Positions 9,529 through 43,554 of a DNA stretch of 64,000 nucleotides are shown piece by piece. The first letter of the stretch is position 1; every line of letters begins with the position of its first letter. The stretch spans positions 1 through 64,000 of the forward strand of contig BOKS01000004.1 in NCBI GenBank assembly GCA_016861105.1, written 5' to 3'. The DNA comes from Betaproteobacteria bacterium (lineage in GTDB: Bacteria; Pseudomonadota; Gammaproteobacteria; Burkholderiales; Casimicrobiaceae). The position numbers and the translations under genes were made by a program. The notes beneath the pieces were generated by a model, which was not told the DNA's origin, searched no databases, and saw only the letters and a list, made by a program, of their open reading frames with translations.

Positions 9529-9660
9529 ATGGCCGAACGCAACCGTACCCGCCGCAACACGCTCGAGCGCCGCTGCCTGCCGAAGACCTTCAAGCGCATG
9601 TTCGCCGGCGCGCCGAAGGGCACGTTCAAGATGCTGGAGAAGGTCAAGCGCGCCAAGTGA
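9529..9660 (+). CDS. Small basic protein, 43 aa
   Basis: ATG at 9529 with AGGAA about six bases upstream opens a 44-codon frame: MAERNRTRRNTLERRCLPKT, then a basic tail ending MLEKVKRAK and TGA. About a third of residues are Arg or Lys, with one Cys. It sits as its own unit between a TAGAAT promoter-like element and a strong hairpin. The compact unit structure and the start signal support it as real. Function is unknown; a nucleic-acid or ribosome-associated role is a guess from charge. Confidence 0.6.
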   Translation: MAERNRTRRNTLERRCLPKTFKRMFAGAPKGTFKMLEKVKRAK

Positions 9661-9680
9661 ACGCGCGCGTCGCACCCCGC

Positions 9681-9706
9681 CGAAGGCCGCCGCGAGGCGG
9701 CCTTCG
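9681..9706 (+). terminator. Strong hairpin after the 43-aa ORF
   Basis: CGAAGGCCGCC (9681-9691) pairs perfectly with GGCGGCCTTCG (9696-9706) around a GCGA loop. It begins 20 bases after the small gene's stop. The tail (CGCTCC) is not T-rich, so it is an imperfect intrinsic terminator or an RNA-stabilising structure. Confidence 0.6.
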
Positions 9707-9776
9707 CGCTCCCGCAGCGGCGGTGCGCGTCTGACCGGGCCGCGGCCCTCCGCGCGGGGCCGCGGCCGGACGTCCG

Positions 9777-10301
9777 ATGCCCTTCGCGTACTACGACCGG
9801 CTCTCGCCGGCCCGCAAGGCGACCTACCGGCGCAGCGACGCGATCGGCGAGCTCCCGCTGCCGGCCGGCGCCTCGCTCGGCGCGACGGTGGTGGCGATCC
9901 GCGACGCGCTCGCGGCCGGACGCCGTGCCGCGCTCCAGCGCGCCTGCCAGGCGCTGTGCGATGCGCTCACCGCGGGCTACCGGGTGCCGCCGGTGCGCGT
10001 TGTCGTCCTCGAGCGCCGCCCGTCGGACGACTACGGCGAGCTGCACGGCCTCTACGAGCCGGCGGAGCGCGGCCGGCGCGCGCGGATCACCGCCTGGATG
10101 CGCACGGCGGCGCGCCAGCAGGTCGTGGCCTTCAGGTCGTTCCTGCGCACGCTGGTCCACGAGCTCGGCCACCACCTCGACTACGAGCTCTTCGCGCTGG
10201 AGGAGACGTTCCACACCGAGGGCTTCTACAAGCGCGAGTCGGGCCTCGCGAACGCGCTGTTCGCGCAGGCCGACGGGGCTGGACAGCCGCCGCCCGGCTG
10301 A
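9777..10301 (+). CDS. Putative zinc-metallopeptidase-like protein
   Basis: The 174-aa soluble protein contains TLVHELGHHLDYE at about residues 124-136, the HExxH zinc-binding pattern with a trailing H-x-x-D as in SprT-like or other gluzincin-type proteins. A helical N-terminal half (residues 1-75) and RVPPVRVVVLERRPSDDYGELHGLYEP precede it. No signal peptide is present, so it is likely cytosolic. The family cannot be named from sequence alone. It precedes the ahcY riboswitch by about 40 bp. Confidence 0.72.
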   Translation: MPFAYYDRLSPARKATYRRSDAIGELPLPAGASLGATVVAIRDALAAGRRAALQRACQALCDALTAGYRVPPVRVVVLERRPSDDYGELHGLYEPAERGRRARITAWMRTAARQQVVAFRSFLRTLVHELGHHLDYELFALEETFHTEGFYKRESGLANALFAQADGAGQPPPG

Positions 10302-32000: not shown

Positions 32001-33470
<1,470 letters not shown>

Positions 33471-33525: not shown

Positions 33526-33679
33526 GGTGCGTTCGGGTCGCGCACCGGCACGGGCGATGAAACGTTTCCCCGGCAGTGCGATAGCATTGCCGGACTCGTC
33601 GACCCCCCGCCTCGTCGCGTCGCGCCCCGCCCGCCTGGCCGCTGCCGCCGGCGGGCCCGCGCCGCCGACGCCGCACGGC

Positions 33680-36097
33680 ATGCCCATGACCGAACCGCAG
33701 GACACGCCGGACCTCGCCCCGCTTCGCGAGCGCCTGCTGCAGGAGCGCTGCGACCGGCTCTGTGCCGAGGCCGCTTCGCTGCGCGACGCGGGCCACGGCA
33801 ACGTGGTGACCTACTCGCGCAAGGTGTTCGTGCCGCTGACGCGACTGTGCCGCGACGTCTGCCACTACTGCACGTTCGCGACGACGCCGCGTGCCGTCGC
33901 GAGGCCCTACCTCGAGCCCGACGAGGTGCTCGCGATCGCGGCGGCCGGAGAGCGCGCGGGCTGTCACGAGGTGCTGTTCACGCTCGGCGACAAGCCCGAG
34001 CTTCGCTACGCTGCCGCGCGGGAGCACCTGGCGCGCCTCGGGTTCGCGTCGACGATCGCCTACCTCGCGGCGATGTGCGACCTGGTGCTGGCGAAGACCT
34101 CGCTGCTGCCCCACGTCAATCCGGGCGTCATGACGCGCGACGACCTCGCGCTGCTGCGCACGGTCAGCGCCTCGCAGGGCCTGATGCTCGAATCGGCGAG
34201 CGAGCGGCTGTGCGCCGCCGGCGAGGTCCACCACGGCTCCCCGGACAAGCGGCCGGCGGCGCGGCTCGCGACGATCCGGCTCGCCGGCGAGCTCGCGATT
34301 CCGTTCACCAGCGGCATCCTGATCGGCATCGGCGAGACGCGCGGGGAACGCATCGACGCGCTGCTGGCGTTGCGGCGACTGCACGAGCGCCACGGCCACC
34401 TGCAGGAGGTCATCGTCCAGAACTTCCGGGCGAAGCCGGGGACGAAGCGCGCGGCGGCGGCCGAGCCGGCGCTCGACGACCTGATGTGGACGATCGCCGC
34501 CGCGCGCGTGGTGTTCGGCGCGTCGATGAGCATCCAGGCGCCGCCCAACCTCACGCCGGAGGCGTACCCGCGGCTGCTGGCGGCCGGCCTCGACGACTGG
34601 GGCGGCGTGTCGCCGGTGACGCCGGACCACGTGAATCCGGAGGCGCCTTGGCCGCACGTGGAGGCCCTGCGCCGCCACACGGCCGCGGCCGGCAAGACGC
34701 TGGTCGAGCGGCTCGCGGTCCACCCGCGCTACGCGAGCGAGCCCGCGCGGTGGCTCGATCCGCACGTCCGCCCGCGGGTCCTCGCGGCGATGGACGCGAG
34801 CGGACACGCGCGCACCGACGCCTGGTGTCCCGGGCTGGCCGTGGCGCCGCCGTCGCTCGGCCCGGCGCGGGCACCGGCGCCCGGGCGCACCGTGTCGCGG
34901 CCGGTCGCGGAGGCGATTGCACGGGCGGTGGACGGCGCGGCGCTCGACGAGGCCGCCGTCGTCGCGCTGTTCGCGGCCCGCGGCGACGATCTTCGGGCCG
35001 TCGTCGCGGCGGCCGACGCGACCCGGCGCGCCGCCGCGGGCGACGTCGTGCGCTACGTCGTGAACCGCAACGTCAACTACACGAACGTCTGCACGTACCG
35101 TTGCCGGTTCTGCGCGTTCTCGAAGGCGGGCGGCGACCTTCGCGGCCCCGCCTACGACCTCGCGCACGAGGAGGTCGCGCGACGCGTGCGCGAGGCATGG
35201 GCGCGCGGCGCCACCGAAGTGTGCATGCAGGGCGGGATCCATCCCGCCTACACCGGCGAGACGTACCTCGCGCTGCTGGACACGGCGAAGCGGGCGGCGC
35301 CCGCGATGCACGTCCACGCGTTCTCGCCGCTGGAGGTCTTCCACGGCGCGCGGACGATGCGCCTGCCGGTGGACGCGTTCCTCGGCCGCCTGCGGGACGC
35401 CGGCCTCGGCTCGTTGCCGGGAACGGCGGCGGAGATCCTGGACGACGGCGTGCGCGCGGTGCTGTGCCCGGACAAGCTCACGACGGACCAATGGCTGGAC
35501 GTGGTCGCGAAGGCGCACGAGTCCGGACTGCGCACGACCGCGACGATCATGTTCGGGCACGTCGACGCGCCCGTCCACTGGGCGCGCCACCTGCTCGCGA
35601 TCCGCGGGCTGCAGGCGCGCACGGGCGGCTTCACCGAGTTCGTGCCGCTGCCGTTCGTGCACATGGAGGCGCCGCTGCACCGCAAGGGCCTCGCGCGGCG
35701 CGGTCCGACCTATCGCGAGGCGGTGCTCATGCACGCGGTCGCGCGGCTCGCGCTCCACCCGCTGCTGACGAACATCCAGGTCTCGTGGGTGAAGATGGGG
35801 ACCTCCGGCGCCGCCGGATGCCTCGCGGCCGGCGCCAACGATCTCGGCGGGACGCTGATGAACGAGAGCATTTCGCGCGCGGCGGGAACGCAGCACGGCC
35901 AGGAGATGCCGCCCGCCGCCATGGAGGCGCTCGTCCGCGGCGCCGGGCGCACGCCGCGCCAGCGCACGACGCTCTACGGCGAGGTGCCCGCGGCGCGCCG
36001 CGCCGCCTCGTTCGCGGCGGCCCCCGTCGCGCCGGTCGTGCTCTCGCCGTCCTGCCGGGGCCGCGACACGGCGGGAACGGGTGCGCCGGTCGCGTGA
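33680..36097 (+). CDS. fbiC: FO synthase, CofG-CofH fusion (FbiC)
   Basis: The 805-aa bifunctional radical-SAM protein makes 7,8-didemethyl-8-hydroxy-5-deazariboflavin (FO), the F420 chromophore, from tyrosine and the riboflavin precursor 5-amino-6-ribitylaminouracil. The N-terminal CofG-like half has cluster motif C57-x3-C61-x2-C64; the CofH-like half has C471-x3-C475-x2-C478. Order and length match actinobacterial FbiC. Other marks: TLGDKPELRY, NFRAKPGT, CMQGGIHPAYTGETY and FVPLPFVHMEAPL. ATGs at 33680 and 33686 are equally plausible; one at 33557 would add an unconserved stretch. Confidence 0.93.
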   Translation: MPMTEPQDTPDLAPLRERLLQERCDRLCAEAASLRDAGHGNVVTYSRKVFVPLTRLCRDVCHYCTFATTPRAVARPYLEPDEVLAIAAAGERAGCHEVLFTLGDKPELRYAAAREHLARLGFASTIAYLAAMCDLVLAKTSLLPHVNPGVMTRDDLALLRTVSASQGLMLESASERLCAAGEVHHGSPDKRPAARLATIRLAGELAIPFTSGILIGIGETRGERIDALLALRRLHERHGHLQEVIVQNFRAKPGTKRAAAAEPALDDLMWTIAAARVVFGASMSIQAPPNLTPEAYPRLLAAGLDDWGGVSPVTPDHVNPEAPWPHVEALRRHTAAAGKTLVERLAVHPRYASEPARWLDPHVRPRVLAAMDASGHARTDAWCPGLAVAPPSLGPARAPAPGRTVSRPVAEAIARAVDGAALDEAAVVALFAARGDDLRAVVAAADATRRAAAGDVVRYVVNRNVNYTNVCTYRCRFCAFSKAGGDLRGPAYDLAHEEVARRVREAWARGATEVCMQGGIHPAYTGETYLALLDTAKRAAPAMHVHAFSPLEVFHGARTMRLPVDAFLGRLRDAGLGSLPGTAAEILDDGVRAVLCPDKLTTDQWLDVVAKAHESGLRTTATIMFGHVDAPVHWARHLLAIRGLQARTGGFTEFVPLPFVHMEAPLHRKGLARRGPTYREAVLMHAVARLALHPLLTNIQVSWVKMGTSGAAGCLAAGANDLGGTLMNESISRAAGTQHGQEMPPAAMEALVRGAGRTPRQRTTLYGEVPAARRAASFAAAPVAPVVLSPSCRGRDTAGTGAPVA

Positions 36098-36126
36098 GCA
36101 CGTCCCCCCCGCCCATGGACACCGGC

Positions 36127-36804
36127 ATGACCCCTCGACCCCTCGACATCGCCATCCTGGGCGGCACCGGCGCCGAAGGCAGCGGCCTGGCCCTGCGCTG
36201 GGCGAAGGCCGGGCACCGCGTGATCCTCGGCTCGCGCAGCGCGGAGAAGGCGGCGAAGGTCCGCGACCGCCTGAACGCGGCGGTCGGCGAGGGGGCCGTC
36301 CGCGTCCTCGACAACCGGGCGGCGGCCGCTGCGGCGGAGATCGTCGTCCTCACCGTCCCGCACGCGGCGCAGCGCGCGACCGTCGAGGACGTGCGGGCCG
36401 AGCTCGCGGGCAAGATCCTGGTGGACGCGACGGTGCCGCTGGTGCCGCCGAAGGTGAGCCGCGTGCAGCTGCCTCCCGAAGGCTCCGCCGTGGCGGCGAT
36501 CCAGGCGCTGCTCGGCGAGGGCGTGAAGGTCGTGTCCGCGTTCCAGAACGTCGCCGCCCACGCGCTCGCGGACCTCGCCCGCGACGTCGACTGCGACGTC
36601 CTGGTGTGCGGCGACGATCCGGCGGCGCGCGAGGTCGTGGTGGGGCTGGCGCGCGACCTCGGCCTGCGTGCGTGGCACGCCGGCCCGATCGTCAATTCCG
36701 TGGTGGCGGAGGCGCTGACGTCGGTGCTGATCGCGATCAACATCCGCTACAAGGCGTCGGGCGCCGGCCTGCGGATCACCGGCGTGCCCGACGTGCCCGG
36801 ATGA
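36127..36804 (+). CDS. npdG: F420:NADP oxidoreductase (NpdG/Fno type)
   Basis: The 225-aa protein begins with the Rossmann motif IAILGGTGAEGSGLALRWAKAGHRVILGSRSAEKA. The S-R motif after beta-2 favours NADP. It continues with VLTVPHAAQ, DATVPLVPPKV and FQNVAAHALADL, typical of F420-dependent NADP reductases, which move hydride between F420 and NADPH. Starts at GTG 36094 (overlapping fbiC) or ATG 36115 are also possible. It overlaps cofE by four bases. Confidence 0.9.
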   Translation: MTPRPLDIAILGGTGAEGSGLALRWAKAGHRVILGSRSAEKAAKVRDRLNAAVGEGAVRVLDNRAAAAAAEIVVLTVPHAAQRATVEDVRAELAGKILVDATVPLVPPKVSRVQLPPEGSAVAAIQALLGEGVKVVSAFQNVAAHALADLARDVDCDVLVCGDDPAAREVVVGLARDLGLRAWHAGPIVNSVVAEALTSVLIAINIRYKASGAGLRITGVPDVPG

Positions 36805-37604
36805 CCGCGGCGGAGGAACTGCGCCCGCGGCCCGTCCCCGGCGCGGCCGAGCTGCGGCTGCTGGCGCTGCCCGGCATTCCGCTCGTCGGCGCGGGCGACG
36901 ACCTCGCCGCCATGATCGCCGACGCGGTCGAGCGCGGCGGCGAGCGCCTGCGCGACGGAGACGTGCTGGTCGTCGCGCAGAAGGTCGTGTCGAAGGCGGA
37001 AGGGCGCGTGGCGCGCCTCGCGGACGTCCGGCCGTCGGAGCGCGCGCACGCCGTCGCCCGGGCGACCGGCAAGGACGCGCGCATCGTCGAGCTGGTGCTC
37101 GCCGAGTCCGACGACGTGGTGCGCGCCGCGCACGACGTCCTCGTCGTGGCGCACCGGCTGGGGTTCGTGATGGCGAATGCCGGCATCGACCAGTCGAACG
37201 TCGGCCCCGGCGACGGCGATGCCGTGCTGCTGCTGCCGCGCGATCCGGACGCGTCGTGCGCGCGGCTGCGCAGCGCGCTTCGCACGCGCGCGGGCGTCGA
37301 CGTCGGCGTGATCGTCAACGACAGCCACGGCCGGGCGTGGCGCAACGGGACGGTGGGCGTGGCGATCGGCGCGGCCGGCGTCCCCGCGCTCGTCGACCTG
37401 CGGGGCCGTGCGGATCTCTTCCAGCGCCATCTCCGCGCCACCGAGGTCGGGCTCGCCGACGAGATCGCGTCGGCGGCGTCGATCGTGATGGGCCAGGCCG
37501 ACGAGGGACGCCCCGTCGTGCTCGTGCGGGGCGTTCCGTACGAACGGCGCGATGGCTGCGCGCGCGAACTCGTGCGGCCGCGCGAGCGCGACCTGTTTCG
37601 CTGA
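36801..37604 (+). CDS. cofE: Coenzyme F420-0:L-glutamate ligase
   Basis: The 267-aa enzyme adds glutamates to F420-0 using GTP. LRLLALPGIPLVGAGDDL, VLVVAQKVVSKAEGR, FVMANAGIDQSNVG and VIVNDSHGRAWRNGTVGVAIGAAG are the CofE signatures. It lacks the C-terminal FMN reductase domain found in mycobacterial FbiB. That domain reduces dehydro-F420 where phosphoenolpyruvate is the precursor, so its absence bears on which precursor is used here. ATG overlaps the npdG stop. Confidence 0.93.
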   Translation: MTAAEELRPRPVPGAAELRLLALPGIPLVGAGDDLAAMIADAVERGGERLRDGDVLVVAQKVVSKAEGRVARLADVRPSERAHAVARATGKDARIVELVLAESDDVVRAAHDVLVVAHRLGFVMANAGIDQSNVGPGDGDAVLLLPRDPDASCARLRSALRTRAGVDVGVIVNDSHGRAWRNGTVGVAIGAAGVPALVDLRGRADLFQRHLRATEVGLADEIASAASIVMGQADEGRPVVLVRGVPYERRDGCARELVRPRERDLFR

Positions 37605-37716
37605 ACGCTGCCGGGGCCATGCGCGCGGGCGCGCTGCGGAGCAGGCGATGCGACGGAGCAGGTGCGGGGCCGCGCGCGGCTGGCGGGCGCGGTGCCCGTC
37701 GCCACGGAGCCGCGCG

Positions 37717-38682
37717 GTGATCCTGGCGCTCGCCGGCGGCGTCGGCGGGTCGAAGCTCGCGCGCGGCCTCGCCGCGTGCCTCGCGCCCTCCGACCTGACG
37801 GTGGTCGTGAACACGGGCGACGACTTCCGCCACCTCGGGCTGTGGGTGTCGCCCGACCTCGACACGGTGGTCTACGCGCTGGCGGGCCTCGCCAACCGCG
37901 AGACCGGATGGGGGCTCGCCGGCGAGACGTGGCACTTCATGGAGGCGCTCGGGCGCCTGGGCGGCGAGACGTGGTTCCGGCTCGGCGACCGCGATCTCGC
38001 CACGCACGTCGAGCGCACGCGCCGACTGGACGCGGGCGCAACGCTGTCGGAAGTCACCGCCGCGCTGTGCGCCGCGTTTGGCGTGGCGCATCGCGTCGTG
38101 CCGATGAGCGACCAGCCGGTCGCGACCGTCGTCCACACCGACGAGGGGCCGCTGCCGTTCCAGCACTACTTCGTGCGGCGCCGGTGCGTGCCCGCGGTGC
38201 GCGCTGTCGAGCACGCCGGGGCGCACTCCGCGCGGCCCTCGCCTGCGTTCGCCGCGGCTCTCGACGATCCCCGCCTGCGGGCGATCGTCGTCGCCCCGTC
38301 CAATCCGCTGCTCAGCATCGGACCGATCCTCGCGGTCGGCGGCGTGCGCGACGCGATCGCGGGCGCACGCGTGCCGGTCGTCGCGGTGTCGCCGATCGTG
38401 GGCGGCGAGGCGGTCAAGGGCCCCGCGGCGAAGATCCTGCGCGAGCTGGGCCACGCGGCATCGGCCGCGACGATCGCGACGCTCTACGCGGGCGTCGCCG
38501 ACGGGCTGGTCGTCGACGAGCGCGATCGTGCCCTGTGCCGCACCGTCGAGGCGGCGGGACTGCGCGTGTGCGTCGCCGACACGCTGATGACGGATGCGCA
38601 GCGCGAGGCGGGGCTGGCGCAGGTCGTCCTGGCGTTCGCGGCGGAGCTCGCGGAGGCGCGCGGGGGGCGCGCATCGGCGTGA
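37717..38682 (+). CDS. cofD: 2-phospho-L-lactate transferase family protein (CofD/FbiA)
   Basis: The 321-aa enzyme transfers the phospho-(lactyl, enolpyruvyl or glyceryl) group from the GDP- or GPP-activated form onto FO. ILALAGGVGGSKLARGLA at the N-terminus, VNTGDDFRHLGLWVSPDLDTV, SDQPVATVV, APSNPLLSIGPIL and SPIVGGEAVKGPAAK are family motifs. The GTG at 37717 gives the normal N-terminus; upstream codons are unconserved. There is a 112-bp gap after cofE. Confidence 0.93.
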   Translation: MILALAGGVGGSKLARGLAACLAPSDLTVVVNTGDDFRHLGLWVSPDLDTVVYALAGLANRETGWGLAGETWHFMEALGRLGGETWFRLGDRDLATHVERTRRLDAGATLSEVTAALCAAFGVAHRVVPMSDQPVATVVHTDEGPLPFQHYFVRRRCVPAVRAVEHAGAHSARPSPAFAAALDDPRLRAIVVAPSNPLLSIGPILAVGGVRDAIAGARVPVVAVSPIVGGEAVKGPAAKILRELGHAASAATIATLYAGVADGLVVDERDRALCRTVEAAGLRVCVADTLMTDAQREAGLAQVVLAFAAELAEARGGRASA

Positions 38683-38710
38683 GCCCGAAGCGCGCAGGGC
38701 GGGGGGGCGC

Positions 38711-39427
38711 ATGGTGAGCGCGTGGCTCCTCGTCCCGGTCAAGGGGCTGGCCTGCGGCAAGGGCCGGCTCGGCGGGTGCCTGGACGCGCGCGCGCGCCGC
38801 GCGCTGAACCGCTACTTCCTGCAGCGTACCCTCGCCGTCGCGCGCGCGTTTCCCGGCGCGGCGCGTACGCTGGTCGTCAGCGAGTGCGCTCGCACGCTGC
38901 GCGTCGCGACGGATGCCGGTGCCCGCGTCGCGTTGCAGCGGGCCGGCACCGGCCTCAACCGCGCGGTCGCGGAAGGCGCCGACGCCCTGCGACGGCTCGG
39001 CGCGGGCGTCGTCGTCGTGCTGCCGGCGGACCTGCCGATGCTGCAAGCCCGCGACGTGCGCGCCCTCGCCGCTGCGGCGGCGGATCCGGGCAGCGCCGCG
39101 CTGTGCCCCGACAAGCACGGCACGGGCACCAACGGACTCGCGCACCACGCGAGCGCCTGCCTGCGGACGCGCTTCGGCGAGGGGAGCTTCGCGGCGCACT
39201 GGCAGGAAGCGCTCCGGGCCGGGGTCGAGCCGCGACGCCACGTCGCCCCCCGCATCGCGTTCGACGTCGACACGATCGACGATCTCGCGCAGTGGTGGCT
39301 CGCCGGCGGGGCGCGCGAGCTGGCGGGCGCCGCCCGGGCCGACGCCACGCTCCGCGAGCTCGCGGGCGGTCTCGCGCGGGCCGTGCCGGACGGGCGGGCC
39401 GCGGCGTCGCGGACGCTCAGCCGCTGA
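38711..39427 (+). CDS. cofC: Phospholactate/phosphoenolpyruvate/phosphoglycerate guanylyltransferase (CofC)
   Basis: The 238-aa nucleotidyltransferase activates the phospho-acid that becomes the F420 side chain. LLVPVKGLACGKGRL at the N-terminus matches the CofC P-x-K...K-x-R-L pattern; VVVLPADLPML is the metal-binding region, and TGTNGLAHH follows. Substrate choice (2-phospho-L-lactate, PEP or 3-phosphoglycerate) cannot be read here. GGGGGG precedes the ATG. Its end overlaps the convergent xthA gene by 11 bp. Confidence 0.88.
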   Translation: MVSAWLLVPVKGLACGKGRLGGCLDARARRALNRYFLQRTLAVARAFPGAARTLVVSECARTLRVATDAGARVALQRAGTGLNRAVAEGADALRRLGAGVVVVLPADLPMLQARDVRALAAAAADPGSAALCPDKHGTGTNGLAHHASACLRTRFGEGSFAAHWQEALRAGVEPRRHVAPRIAFDVDTIDDLAQWWLAGGARELAGAARADATLRELAGGLARAVPDGRAAASRTLSR

Positions 39428-40217
39428 AGGCCTCCAGCGCCAGCTCCACGAGCACCGGCGCGTGGTCGGAGGGCTTCTCGCCCTTGCGCGCCGCGCGGTC
39501 GATGCGCGCGGCCGTGCAGCGCTTCGCGAGCTCGGCGGAGAGCAGGATGTGGTCGATGCGCAGCCCCCTGTTCTTCGGGAAGGCGAGCATCCGGTAGTCC
39601 CACCAGCTGAACGTGTTCGGCGGCTGCTCGAACAGGCGGAAGCTGTCGGCGAGCCCGAGCGCGAGCCAGTCGCGGAAGCGCTGGCGCTCGGGTTCGGAGA
39701 AGAGCACCTGTCCTTCCCACGCCGCCGGGTCGTGGACGTCGCGCGGCTCGGGCGCGATGTTCATGTCGCCCGCGAACGCGAGCCGCGGGTGCTCCGCCAG
39801 CGCCGCGCGCAGCATCGCCGTCGCCGCATCGCACCACGCGAGCTTGTAGGCGTACTTGTCGGAGCCGACCGCCTGGCCGTTGGGGACGTAGGCGCAGATC
39901 ACGCGCACGCCGCCGATCGTCGCGGCGATCACCCGCTTCTGCGCGTCGTCGTAGCCCGCGAGGCCGGTGGCGAGGTCCGCGACGGCGAGGCCGTCGCGGA
40001 CCAGCAGCGCGACGCCGTTGTACGTGCGCTGCCCGGAGGCGAACGCCCGGTAGCCGGCCGCGACGATCGCCTCGTGCGGGAAACGCTCGTCCTCGAGCTT
40101 GGTCTCCTGCAGGCAGACGACGTCCGGGCGGTTCGCGCCGAGCCAGTCGACGAGCCGCTGCAGGCGCACGTTCAGCGAGTTGACGTTCCAGGTGACGAGC
40201 TTCACGCGAGGATCCAC
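39417..40217 (-). CDS. xthA: Exodeoxyribonuclease III
   Basis: The 266-aa AP endonuclease/3'-5' exonuclease works in base-excision repair. VTWNVNSLNVRL, CLQETKLED (metal-binding Glu), NGVALLVRD, CAYVPNG, AGDMNIAPEPRDVHD, SWWDYR and LRIDHILLS...SDHAPVLVEL cover the family's catalytic motifs. Convergent with cofC. Confidence 0.95.
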   Translation of the reverse strand: MDPRVKLVTWNVNSLNVRLQRLVDWLGANRPDVVCLQETKLEDERFPHEAIVAAGYRAFASGQRTYNGVALLVRDGLAVADLATGLAGYDDAQKRVIAATIGGVRVICAYVPNGQAVGSDKYAYKLAWCDAATAMLRAALAEHPRLAFAGDMNIAPEPRDVHDPAAWEGQVLFSEPERQRFRDWLALGLADSFRLFEQPPNTFSWWDYRMLAFPKNRGLRIDHILLSAELAKRCTAARIDRAARKGEKPSDHAPVLVELALEAFSG

Positions 40218-40351
40218 GGCGGGGGCGGCGGTCCGCTAGTGTAGGACCTGCCGGTGCCGCACGGCGACCGTGCCGGGGCGCCCGCGGCGCCCTTCGTCGT
40301 CACCCGGGAATGCCCCGGGGAACTTCCGGGGGCGGCGGCACTCGACTGACG

Positions 40352-41065
40352 GTGGAACCGCGGCCCGTGATCACGCTCGAGCAGGTGTCGTTGCACTACG
40401 CCACGGCGGGCTCGCGCGTGGACGTGCTGCGCGACGTCGACCTCGCGATCCCCGAGGGGCAGGGTGTCGCGGTCGCGGGGCCCTCCGGCTCGGGCAAGAC
40501 CTCGCTGCTGCTGCTCCTCGCCGGGCTCGAGCGTCCGGCGGGCGGCCGGGTGCGCCTGCACGGCGTCGACCTCGCGACACTGGCCCGCGACGAGCTGGCC
40601 GACCTGCGGCGCGACCGCATCGGCATCGTCTTCCAGGCGTTCCACCTGCTTCCCAGCCTCAGCGCGCTCGACAACGTCGCCCTGCCGCTGCACATCGCCG
40701 GCCGGCGCGACGCGGCGTCGCGCGCACGCGACCTGCTGCGGCGCGTCGGCCTCGCGCACCGGCTCGACCACCTCCCCGGGCAGCTCTCCGGCGGCGAGCA
40801 GCAGCGCGTCGCCATCGCGCGGGCGCTCGTCCACGCGCCGCGCCTCTTGCTCGCGGACGAGCCGACCGGCAACCTCGACAACGAGACGGGCGCCATGGTG
40901 CGCGAGCTGCTGCTGGAGCTGCACCGCGACATCGGCACGACGCTGGTGCTGGTCACGCACGACCTCGAGTTCGCGGCGCGCTGCGACCGCGTGCTGCACC
41001 TCCACGACGGACGCCTGCACGAGCGGCCGCGACGCGCGGCGGGCGCCGATGCCGTTCCTGCTTGA
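40352..41065 (+). CDS. ABC transporter ATP-binding protein (LolD/YbbA type)
   Basis: The 237-aa ATPase has Walker A GPSGSGKTS, the Q-loop FQAFHLLPSLSALDNVALPL, signature LSGGEQQRVAIARALV and Walker B LLADEPTGNLD. Proteins of this shape pair with FtsX/MacB-like permeases such as LolCE or YbbP. The GTG at 40352 (MEPRPVITLEQV) is preferred; an ATG at 40310 adds a Gly-rich stretch. Its end overlaps the permease start by 17 bp. Confidence 0.9.
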   Translation: MEPRPVITLEQVSLHYATAGSRVDVLRDVDLAIPEGQGVAVAGPSGSGKTSLLLLLAGLERPAGGRVRLHGVDLATLARDELADLRRDRIGIVFQAFHLLPSLSALDNVALPLHIAGRRDAASRARDLLRRVGLAHRLDHLPGQLSGGEQQRVAIARALVHAPRLLLADEPTGNLDNETGAMVRELLLELHRDIGTTLVLVTHDLEFAARCDRVLHLHDGRLHERPRRAAGADAVPA

Positions 41066-43554
41066 CCTCGCCTGGCGCGACCTGCGCCGCGGCGGCCGCC
41101 CGCTGCTGGTGTTCGCCGCCTGCCTGATGCTCGGCGTCGCGCTCGTCGCGGCCGGCGGCGGGCTGTACCGGCAGGTCGCGTCGTCGCTCGCGGCGGACGT
41201 CCGCGCGCTGTTCGGCGGCGACGTCGAGCTGCGCAGCGACGCGCCGCTCGCCTCCGGCGAAGTCGCGTGGGCGGGCCAGCGCGGGCGCCTGTCGCGCGTG
41301 GTGCAGCTGCGCACCATGGCGCGGGGCGACGACGGCCGGGCGCAGCTGGTCGAGCTGTGGAGCGTGGACGACGCCTATCCGCTGGCCGGGCGGCTCGAGC
41401 TCGCGCCGCCGCAGCCGCTCGCGGCGGCGCTGGCGCACGCCGACGGGGCCTGGGGCGTCGCGCTCGACGGCGTGCTGGCGCGGCGCATGGGGCTCGCGAT
41501 CGGCGACGCGGTGGCGATCGGCGACGCGACGCTGCGCGTGCGCGCGATCGTCGTGCAGCAGCCGGACCGGAGCCTGCGCGCGGACTGGGGCGGCGCGCCC
41601 GTGCTGGTGGGTGCCGGCGCGCTGGCGGACACCGGGCTGCTGCGGCCGGGCAGCCGCGTCGACTACCGCTATCGCGTCGCCACGCCGCTGCCGCCGGTGC
41701 AGTGGCGCGACGCGTTCGTGGCGGCGTTTCCCGCGTCGCAGGTCGAGGTCCGCACCGTGTCCGACCGCAGCGACCGCATCGCGCGCGTGCTCGGGCAGAT
41801 CGGCTCGGGACTGCTGCTGGTGGGCATCTCGGCGCTGTTCATCGGCGGGCTGGGCGTGTTCAACAGCGTGCAGGCGTACCTGCAGGGCAAGCTGTCGACG
41901 TACGCGACGCTGCGGGCGCTCGGGCTGCGCGACGCGCGGCTCGCCGCGCTCGTGCTGCTCCAGATCCTGATGCTGGCGGTGGCGGCGAGCGCGATCGGCG
42001 CGCTGGCCCGCGCTCGCGCTCGGAGGGTTGGCGCTGGCGGCGCAATCGCAGCCGGTCGCCTTCGCGCCGCAGGCGCTCGCGATGCCGCTGCTCGCCGCGG
42101 TGGCGTTCGGCGTGCTGACGGCGCTGACGTTCGCGCTCCCCGCGCTGGGGCGCGCGCTCGCCGTGAGCCCTGCGGCACTGTTCCGCGGCACGGACGCCGG
42201 GGTGCTGCGCACGCCGCGCGCGGCGTGGCTGCTCGCCGCGCTGGCGGGCGCCGGCGTGCTCGGCCTCGCGTTCGCGACGCTGCCCGAGCCGCGGTTCGCG
42301 CTCGCCTTCCTCGGCGTCGCGGTCGTGCTGCTGCTGCTGCTGGAGGCGATGCTCCGCGGGCTGCGGCGAGGGGCCGCCTGGCTGCTCGCGCATCCGCGCT
42401 GGCAGCCGGGCTTCGAGCTTCGCGTCGCGCTCTCCGGCGTCCGGCAGCCGGGCTCGCCGCTGCGTGTGTCGCTGCTGTCGCTGGGCTCCGCGCTGACGCT
42501 GCTGGTGGCGTGCACGCTGGTGATCGCCTCGCTGCTGCGGACGATCGACGAGACGGTGCCGAGGCACGCGCCGGCGCTCGTGTTCCACGACGTGCAGAAC
42601 GATCAGCTCGCCACGCTCGGCGCGGTGCTGCGCACCGCGCCGAGCCTCGAGCGCGTGCGTACCGCGCCGCTGGTGCTGGGGCGGCTGGCGGCGGTCAACG
42701 GCGTTCCGCTGCGCGACAGCCCCGACGCTGAGCGGCGCCGCGAGGCGCGCGACGAGCACAAGTTGAGCGACCGGTCCGGCAACATGGACGACGTCGTCGT
42801 GACGCGCGGCGCGTGGTGGCCGGAGGGCGACCGCAGCCGGCCGCGCGTGGCGATGGAGGATCGCGAGGCCGAGCCGCTGGGGCTTGCGATCGGCGACACG
42901 CTGCGCTTCACGATCCAGGGGACGAGCGTGGAGGTCGAGCTCGCCGCGATCTACGCGCAGCGACGCTTCCAGTCGCGGCTGTGGCTCGAGGCGATCTTCA
43001 GCGACGGCGTGCTTGATCCCTTCGTCACGCGCCACGTCGGCGGCGCCTGGCTGTCGGCGGAGGACGCGATCGACGTGCAGGACCGCCTCGCCGCGGCGGC
43101 CCCGAACGTCGCGAGCGTGCGCACGCAGGCGGTGCTCGACGCGGCGCGCACGCTGATGGGACGGGCCGGCGCCGGACTCGCGGTGATCGCCGGGGCGCTG
43201 CTCGCCGCGAGCCTGCTGGTGCTGGCCGGCGTGATCGTGGCGAGCCGGTCGCGGCACGCCTACGAGGCGGGCGTGATGCACACGCTGGGCGCGCGGGTGT
43301 CGAGCCTCGCGCGCGTGCTGCGCCTCGAGTACGCGCTGCTGGCGCTGCTGACCGCGGCCTTCGCGATCGCCGCGGGAACCGCGCTCGCGGTCGTCCTGCT
43401 CGAGTGGCGCCTCGAGCTGGACGCGGCGGGACTGTACTGGACCGGGGCGCTGACCGCGCTGGTCGTCAGCGCCCTGAGCCTGGGCGCCGGCGCGCGGGTC
43501 CTGCTCGCGCAGTTGCGGGGCTCGCCGGCGCGGCTGCTGCGCGGCGGGGCGTGA
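41049..43554 (+). pseudogene. FtsX/MacB-like ABC permease, frameshifted (YbbP-like)
   Basis: Two reading frames together encode one permease of about 834 aa. The first part (41049 to about 42009) starts MPFLLDLAWRDLRRGGRPLL with a membrane segment, a large periplasmic region and FtsX-like helices (LLLVGISALFIGGLGVFNSVQAYL). The second part (from about 42010) continues with a conserved permease core and a second FtsX domain ending LAQLRGSPARLLRGGA. Removing one C from the CCC at 42007-42009 restores the expected ...LAALALGGLALAA... helix. This is either a real inactivating mutation or a sequencing error in a C/G-rich stretch. YbbAP-like systems are linked to lysophospholipid or hydrophobe export; substrate unknown here. 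Confidence 0.82.

What the first reader, a model, noticed from the sequence alone, without database searches (positions are those of the whole stretch)
33680..39427. Complete-looking coenzyme F420 cluster in a betaproteobacterial chromosome
fbiC, npdG, cofE, cofD and cofC run in one direction with overlapping or short junctions. F420 synthesis is classic in archaea and actinobacteria and is reported only patchily in Proteobacteria, for example Paraburkholderia rhizoxinica. FbiC is the actinobacteria-style CofG-CofH fusion, CofE lacks the FbiB reductase domain, and an F420:NADP reductase is built in. This set could make and recharge F420. Codon usage matches neighbours, so transfer, if any, is old. 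No F420-dependent substrate enzyme is nearby.
Basis: partly seen in the sequence, partly recalled or inferred. Interest (0 to 1): 0.78.

Follow-up and report, generated by a model that had tools for sequence, protein, structure and literature searches.

The report
F420 cofactor operon in a proteobacterium
A bacterium carries a complete, ordinary set of genes for making the redox cofactor F420, probably picked up by gene transfer, but its (incomplete) genome shows no clear enzyme that uses the cofactor and no known enzyme for one possible finishing step.

Summary
Five genes at 33680-39427 (+) encode FbiC, NpdG/Fno, CofE, CofD and CofC; each passes a curated NCBIfam equivalog cut-off. It is a new member of a known kind: of 53 complete clusters among 106 loci examined, 13, this one included, have this gene order.

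Three points change the reading. (1) CofC's best solved relative is the 3-phosphoglycerate enzyme 7p97, but the diagnostic serine is glycine here and in 70 of 73 other CofCs aligned (Asp in three). So 3PG-F420 is not predicted; 2-phospholactate or PEP is. (2) The PEP route needs an FbiB-C/FbiE-type reductase. The sister clusters (G132, G208) hold a candidate between cofE and cofD; none was found in this 85%-complete genome. (3) 22 of 24 F420-positive genomes of the order have 3-36 luciferase-like genes; this one has 2, like its F420-negative congeners (0-2 in 17).

The cluster sits in a variable slot between ntrC and xthA. Whether the three same-genus clusters were acquired separately is suggested, not settled: one clade is rejected by four proteins (AU p 2e-7), not by FbiC alone (p 0.18).

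The parts
33680..36097 (+). fbiC: FO synthase, CofG-CofH fusion, 805 aa
   Evidence: NF006687 1125 bits (cut-off 1018), TIGR03550 486/213, TIGR03551 553/374; two CX3CX2C motifs; 59-67% identical to ten FbiC proteins of the same order
36127..36804 (+). npdG/fno: NADPH:F420 oxidoreductase, 225 aa
   Evidence: TIGR01915 208/150; best PDB matches 5n2i and 1jax, F420:NADP oxidoreductases
36801..37604 (+). cofE: F420-0 gamma-glutamyl ligase, 267 aa, no FbiB nitroreductase domain
   Evidence: TIGR01916 289/181; best PDB match 7uld, coenzyme F420:L-glutamate ligase, E 5e-53
37717..38682 (+). cofD/fbiA: phospho-C3-acid transferase, 321 aa, probable GTG start
   Evidence: TIGR01819 309/257; PDB 3c3d 215 bits, 6uvx 170 bits
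38711..39427 (+). cofC/fbiD: phospho-C3-acid guanylyltransferase, 238 aa; L, V, T, G at M. rhizoxinica positions 91, 95, 145, 162 (2-PL/PEP type by published criterion)
   Evidence: TIGR03552 135/105; PDB 7p97 69 bits, 6bwg 33, 2i5e 21; residues
37605..37716 (+). cofE-cofD spacer, where L077, L078 and an Afipia cluster (L115) carry an FbiB-C-like nitroreductase gene; no such gene here
   Evidence: spacer read in three frames
32001..33470 (+). ntrC, left border of the slot; glnA and ntrB lie upstream
   Evidence: Pfam response regulator, sigma-54 activator and Fis HTH; conserved in 12 of 12 F420-negative congeners fetched
39417..40217 (-). xthA-type nuclease gene, right border of the slot (exonuclease III is the recalled name; Pfam gives the superfamily)
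   Evidence: PF03372 108 bits; synteny in 12 of 12 congeners fetched

Best explanation
This is a functional-looking F420 operon of the common proteobacterial kind, probably acquired by horizontal transfer into a variable slot between ntrC and xthA. FbiC makes the deazaflavin FO; CofC activates a C3 phospho-acid (2-phospholactate or PEP, not 3-phosphoglycerate) with GTP; CofD joins it to FO; CofE adds gamma-glutamates; NpdG reduces the product with NADPH (reactions from established knowledge of the families). Gene identities, residues and the slot are shown here; product and activity are inferred. Transfer is suggested by patchy distribution, synteny and trees, not proved. The enzyme that uses the cofactor is not identified.
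For: All five proteins over a curated equivalog cut-off. Same five genes together in 53 of 106 loci, 13 of them (window included) in this order (G009 and G041 are each represented by two of the 106 loci). CofC metal and substrate residues conserved: three Asp and Ser165 in 74 of 74, Lys in 73 of 74. Both Cys motifs in 103 of 103 FbiC proteins scoring over 700 bits. glnA-ntrB-ntrC and xthA flank a slot of 0.5-5.4 kb, in which tblastn found no F420 gene, in 12 of 12 F420-negative congeners fetched. FbiC (CofG domain over cut-off) in 3 of 22 genomes of the genus and 24 of 399 genomes searched, in 10 families, plus one sub-threshold fragment (G270). Four-protein tree: window with G132 and G208 (SH-aLRT 97); one clade of the three same-genus clusters rejected, AU p 2.3e-7. 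FbiC matches on 60 of 72,556 plasmid records, 18 of the 60 predicted conjugative.
Against: FbiC alone does not reject one clade of the three same-genus clusters (AU p 0.18). The four-protein test came after the FbiC tree had been seen, used a simple LG+G4 model and a quick search, and many rows, the window included, have odd composition. The position of the clusters in G005 and G009 relative to the ntrC-xthA slot was not determined: xthA gave no match there. The genome is a fragmentary assembly, 85% complete, so missing enzymes may lie in the part not held. No expression or product data. No FbiE-type reductase was found, and no source of 2-phospholactate is known.
Confidence: 0.85

Rival explanations
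1. The operon makes 3PG-F420, as in the endofungal betaproteobacterium Mycetohabitans (Paraburkholderia) rhizoxinica, so no reductase is needed.
For: Best solved relative of CofC is the 3PG enzyme 7p97, 69 bits against 33 for FbiD; no FbiE-type reductase found; few candidate F420-dependent enzymes, as the review PMC8498797 reports for P. rhizoxinica (passage).
Against: Position 162 is Gly, 91 Leu, 95 Val, 145 Thr. In Hasan et al. (PMC8764529, passages and sections) changes of S162 other than to Thr moved the enzyme to 2-PL and PEP, and Ser or Thr there marked enzymes that take 3-PG (one further enzyme, from Ca. Entotheonella factor, took 8% 3-PG in the standard assay and none with its own CofD). 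None of 74 CofCs aligned has Ser or Thr there. H145 mutants of the M. rhizoxinica enzyme were unchanged, so that position counts little.
Confidence: 0.07
2. The product that matters is FO, made by FbiC, used as light-harvesting antenna of a DNA photolyase or as a secreted signal; the tail genes are secondary.
For: The genome has two photolyase/cryptochrome genes; for one (L182) the 8-HDF-type model is the best NCBIfam hit, 417 bits. FO, not 3PG-F420, is needed for fungal sporulation in the M. rhizoxinica symbiosis (PMC11104420, abstract and passages). Candidate F420 users are few.
Against: That score is far below the model's cut-off of 885. cofC, cofD, cofE and npdG are intact and tightly linked, which selection for FO alone would not be expected to maintain.
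Confidence: 0.08
3. The cluster is a vertically inherited relic of an F420-producing ancestor of the genus, lost in most relatives.
For: Codon usage matches neighbours; FbiC alone does not reject one clade of the three same-genus clusters.
Against: In the stretches read, the G005 and G009 loci hold an Fgd-type gene and no npdG, and G005's whole 14 kb contig no cofD; the three lie apart in both trees, and four proteins reject one clade. 19 of 22 genomes of the genus have no FbiC over the cut-off.
Confidence: 0.12

Closest known systems
   Same: Nearest relatives in the four-protein tree; same gene order
   Different: They carry an FbiB-C-like nitroreductase between cofE and cofD and a luciferase-like gene between fbiC and npdG; the window has neither
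Commonest arrangement found, npdG-cofE-cofD-cofC-fbiC (36 of 53 complete clusters)
   Same: Same five genes, one direction
   Different: fbiC is last, not first
Mycetohabitans rhizoxinica 3PG-F420 pathway (FbiD3PG; 7p97)
   Same: F420-type genes in a betaproteobacterium; nearest solved CofC
   Different: CofC differs at all four specificity positions looked at
Mycobacterial FbiABCD pathway (PEP, dehydro-F420, FbiB)
   Same: FbiC fusion; CofC has Leu and Gly at the positions of FbiD L92 and G163
   Different: CofE has no C-terminal reductase, and no FbiB-C-like gene was found elsewhere in the held genome

Membership tests
Bacterial F420 biosynthesis cluster | FbiC (or CofG and CofH) with two radical-SAM Cys motifs | tested here: met
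Bacterial F420 biosynthesis cluster | CofC, CofD and CofE over curated family cut-offs | tested here: met
   (TIGR03552, TIGR01819, TIGR01916)
Bacterial F420 biosynthesis cluster | An F420-reducing dehydrogenase (Fno or Fgd) | tested here: met
   NpdG/Fno 208 bits, cut-off 150
Bacterial F420 biosynthesis cluster | Cells contain F420 | not testable with these tools
   needs LC-MS
3PG-F420 pathway (Mycetohabitans) | Ser or Thr at CofC position 162 | tested here: not met
   Gly (criterion from PMC8764529 section 10)
PEP / dehydro-F420 pathway (FbiB or FbiE) | FbiB C-terminal domain or stand-alone FbiE homolog in the genome | tested here: not met
   No match at E 0.001 in G000 to the alignment of six cluster nitroreductases; its two PF00881 genes score best with SagB and PRK10828 nitroreductase models, both below cut-off. 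Genome 85% complete, so absence is not final
2-phospholactate pathway (archaeal type) | A source of 2-phospho-L-lactate | not testable with these tools
   The proposed lactate kinase CofB is unidentified (PMC8498797 section 27)

The most novel reading that the evidence does not exclude
Most F420-positive genomes of this order, the window's included, close the pathway in a way not explained by the FbiB/FbiE or 3PG routes: 2-phospholactate from an unknown source, a dehydro-F420 reductase unlike FbiE, or unreduced dehydro-F420 as the working cofactor. Basis: no CofC has the 3PG residue (0 of 74), and 22 of 24 F420-positive genomes of the order have no match near the cluster-type nitroreductase (next best 51 bits against 374-375). 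The window's cluster may have lost its copy, since its two sisters hold one in the cofE-cofD gap.
Probability: 0.45. Interest if true: 0.55.

Novelty: new member of a known kind. Interest (0 to 1): 0.3.

Why it matters
F420 clusters in proteobacteria are already known, so the cluster itself is not news. What it makes testable is which C3 acid Gram-negative producers use and what reduces the dehydro form: the closest sister clusters differ from this one by an FbiB-C-like gene between cofE and cofD and a luciferase-like gene after fbiC, so side-by-side expression of the CofC/CofD pairs with and without the nitroreductase would answer it. It also offers a genome with F420 synthesis and NADPH-driven reduction but few candidates for the usual consumer enzymes, a place to look for new kinds of F420 user.

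Tried and rejected
3PG-F420 reading, suggested by the nearest solved structure, rejected on specificity residues. A remnant of the nitroreductase in the 112 bp cofE-cofD spacer: reading three frames by eye shows nothing like the sisters' protein; no formal search was done. Consumers: LLM family (PF00296), two genes, one over the MsnO8 cut-off (390/167), the other below every cut-off listed (best TIGR03619 114/167); F420H2_quin_red, none in the genome, while the same model matched in 5 of 41 genomes, though in none of the 14 control genomes; PNPOx family, six matches, one PdxH, the others below all cut-offs listed (best F420 model TIGR03618 41/79). FrhB, Fsr, Mtd and other F420 enzyme families were not searched. 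A first scan of genome contigs with CofC confirmed no relative and CofC against plasmids found nothing at 1e-10, while FbiC matched 60 records: CofC is a poor probe. The AU test of window plus G009 alone was not finished. Ney et al. 2017 is not held and is known here only through the review. No structure prediction was made. Archaeal and actinobacterial homologs were not put in the trees.
Full report
What is there. fbiC (33680-36097), npdG (36127-36804), cofE (36801-37604), cofD (37717-38682, probable GTG start) and cofC (38711-39427) run on the + strand with gaps of 29, -4, 112 and 28 bp for these starts. Each is over an NCBIfam equivalog cut-off. CofC, CofD, CofE and NpdG match solved enzymes of the pathway; FbiC's best solved relative is the aminodeoxyfutalosine synthase 6xi9. 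Left are glnA, ntrB and ntrC; right, in the opposite direction, an xthA-type nuclease gene, then an ABC-type ATPase gene.

How common it is. The best 80 were kept; they are 53-70% identical and by their titles come from alpha-, beta- and gammaproteobacteria, Acidobacteriota and Chloroflexota. Of 399 genomes searched, the window's own included, 24 have a CofG-domain match over the cut-off, in ten families, but only 3 of the 22 genomes of its genus. I searched 106 loci (the window, 25 from the order, 80 from GTDB; G009 and G041 appear twice) with five profile models built from the order's proteins. All five genes lie together in 53, in the order npdG-cofE-cofD-cofC-fbiC in 36 and in the window's order in 13. 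Of the other 53, some are cut by contig ends (for example L088, L090, L093), and some show fbiC alone in an 18 kb stretch (for example L095, L097, L113, L132).

What it should make. CofC selects the C3 acid. Hasan et al. (PMC8764529; outline, abstract, sections 5, 10, 11, 12, 15, 16 and passages read) showed that serine or threonine at position 162 marks enzymes that take 3-phosphoglycerate, with M91 and C95 contributing. In the window positions 162, 91, 95 and 145 are Gly, Leu, Val and Thr. Of 74 CofCs aligned (window included) position 162 is Gly in 71 and Asp in three, Ser or Thr in none. So 3PG-F420 is not predicted, although 7p97 is the nearest solved structure. The paper adds that CofD also selects among intermediates, and that CofC assays cannot tell whether 2-PL or PEP is used in vivo.

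The open step. [quoted passage not shown] CofE here has no such domain. Six of the 106 loci carry a separate nitroreductase in or beside the cluster (L077, L078, L109, L115, L118, L168), in L077, L078 and L115 between cofE and cofD. The one in L077, the only one so scanned, matches the FbiB C-terminal model at 138 bits, below its cut-off of 250, so its role is inferred. With these six as query I searched 29 genomes, 24 F420-positive and 5 negative: only G132 and G208 have a near match (374-375 bits); the next best anywhere is 51 bits, and the window's genome has none at E 0.001. Its two PF00881 genes score best with other nitroreductase models. So either 2-PL is used, or another reductase exists, or dehydro-F420 is the end product, or the gene lies in the part of the genome not held.

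Consumers. Luciferase-like (PF00296) genes in 41 genomes: in 24 F420-positive genomes 0-36 each, 22 of them with at least 3, the exceptions being the window's genome (2) and G393 (0); in 17 F420-negative congeners (of 19) 0-2 each. For G200 and G239 not all candidates were scored, so their counts are lower bounds. Neither of the window genome's two passes an F420-specific model. F420H2_quin_red was found in 5 of 41, not here. Six PNPOx-family matches include PdxH; the rest are below the F420-family cut-offs, which leaves weak candidates (L176, L178). FrhB, Fsr, Mtd and other families were not searched.

Origin. xthA was found in 15 F420-negative congeners; I fetched the region of 12. In all 12 glnA-ntrB-ntrC and xthA flank a slot of 0.5-5.4 kb in which tblastn found none of the five F420 genes; in the window the slot is 5.9 kb and holds the cluster. 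The same slot was not located in G005 and G009. The three F420-positive congeners do not form a clade in the four-protein tree (69 rows, LG+G4; AU p 2.3e-7), but FbiC alone does not reject it (103 rows; p 0.18). The window's placement differs between the trees: with G132 and G208 in the four-protein tree (SH-aLRT 97), in a group of 14 rows, 13 of them from the order and one Xanthobacteraceae, in the FbiC tree (94). FbiC matches occur on plasmids, including those of Aromatoleum and Paraburkholderia. Acquisition by transfer is therefore likely, its source and time unknown. Composition matches the host, which says little if the donor was also GC-rich.

Verdict. The interest lies in the unclosed C3 step and the scarcity of candidate consumers, both testable.

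Noticed in passing
window 33570-33593: Inverted repeat (10 bp arms, 9 of 10 paired, 4 bp loop) between ntrC and fbiC, the only match in the window to its own pattern with up to 3 mismatches; 3 of 100 shuffles held one. Could be the ntrC terminator hairpin or an operator.
   Followed up: partly
window 40310-43554: ABC-type ATPase gene and a large downstream ORF lie between xthA and the glutaredoxin-domain gene. The ATPase had no match in any of the 12 congener regions fetched; where both neighbours are in the stretch (10 of 12) they are 0.17-0.23 kb apart in six and 0.9-2.1 kb in four. Possibly a second insertion beside the first. An ABC transporter beside the P. rhizoxinica cluster was proposed as exporter (PMC8498797).
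   Followed up: partly
L182 (G000:C10) and L181 (G000:C23): Two photolyase/cryptochrome genes; for L182 the 8-HDF-type model scores best, though below its cut-off. FbiC could supply the FO antenna.
   Followed up: partly
L036 7026-11264: A congener (G005) has cofE, an Fgd (TIGR03554 492 bits, cut-off 420), fbiC and cofC in one 14 kb contig, with no npdG or cofD found there.
   Followed up: partly
L082 8536-10898: One relative (G145) has CofG and CofH as two separate reading frames.
   Followed up: no
L075 (G393): A 2.0 Mb genome given as 99% complete has the full F420 cluster and no luciferase-like match; an ORF at 9604-10191 beside fbiC looks PNPOx-like by eye only.
   Followed up: partly
L043 6291-6914 and L044 6353-6976: The window genome's two nitroreductase-family genes score best with the SagB and PRK10828 models, below cut-off, not with FbiB-C.
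   Followed up: yes
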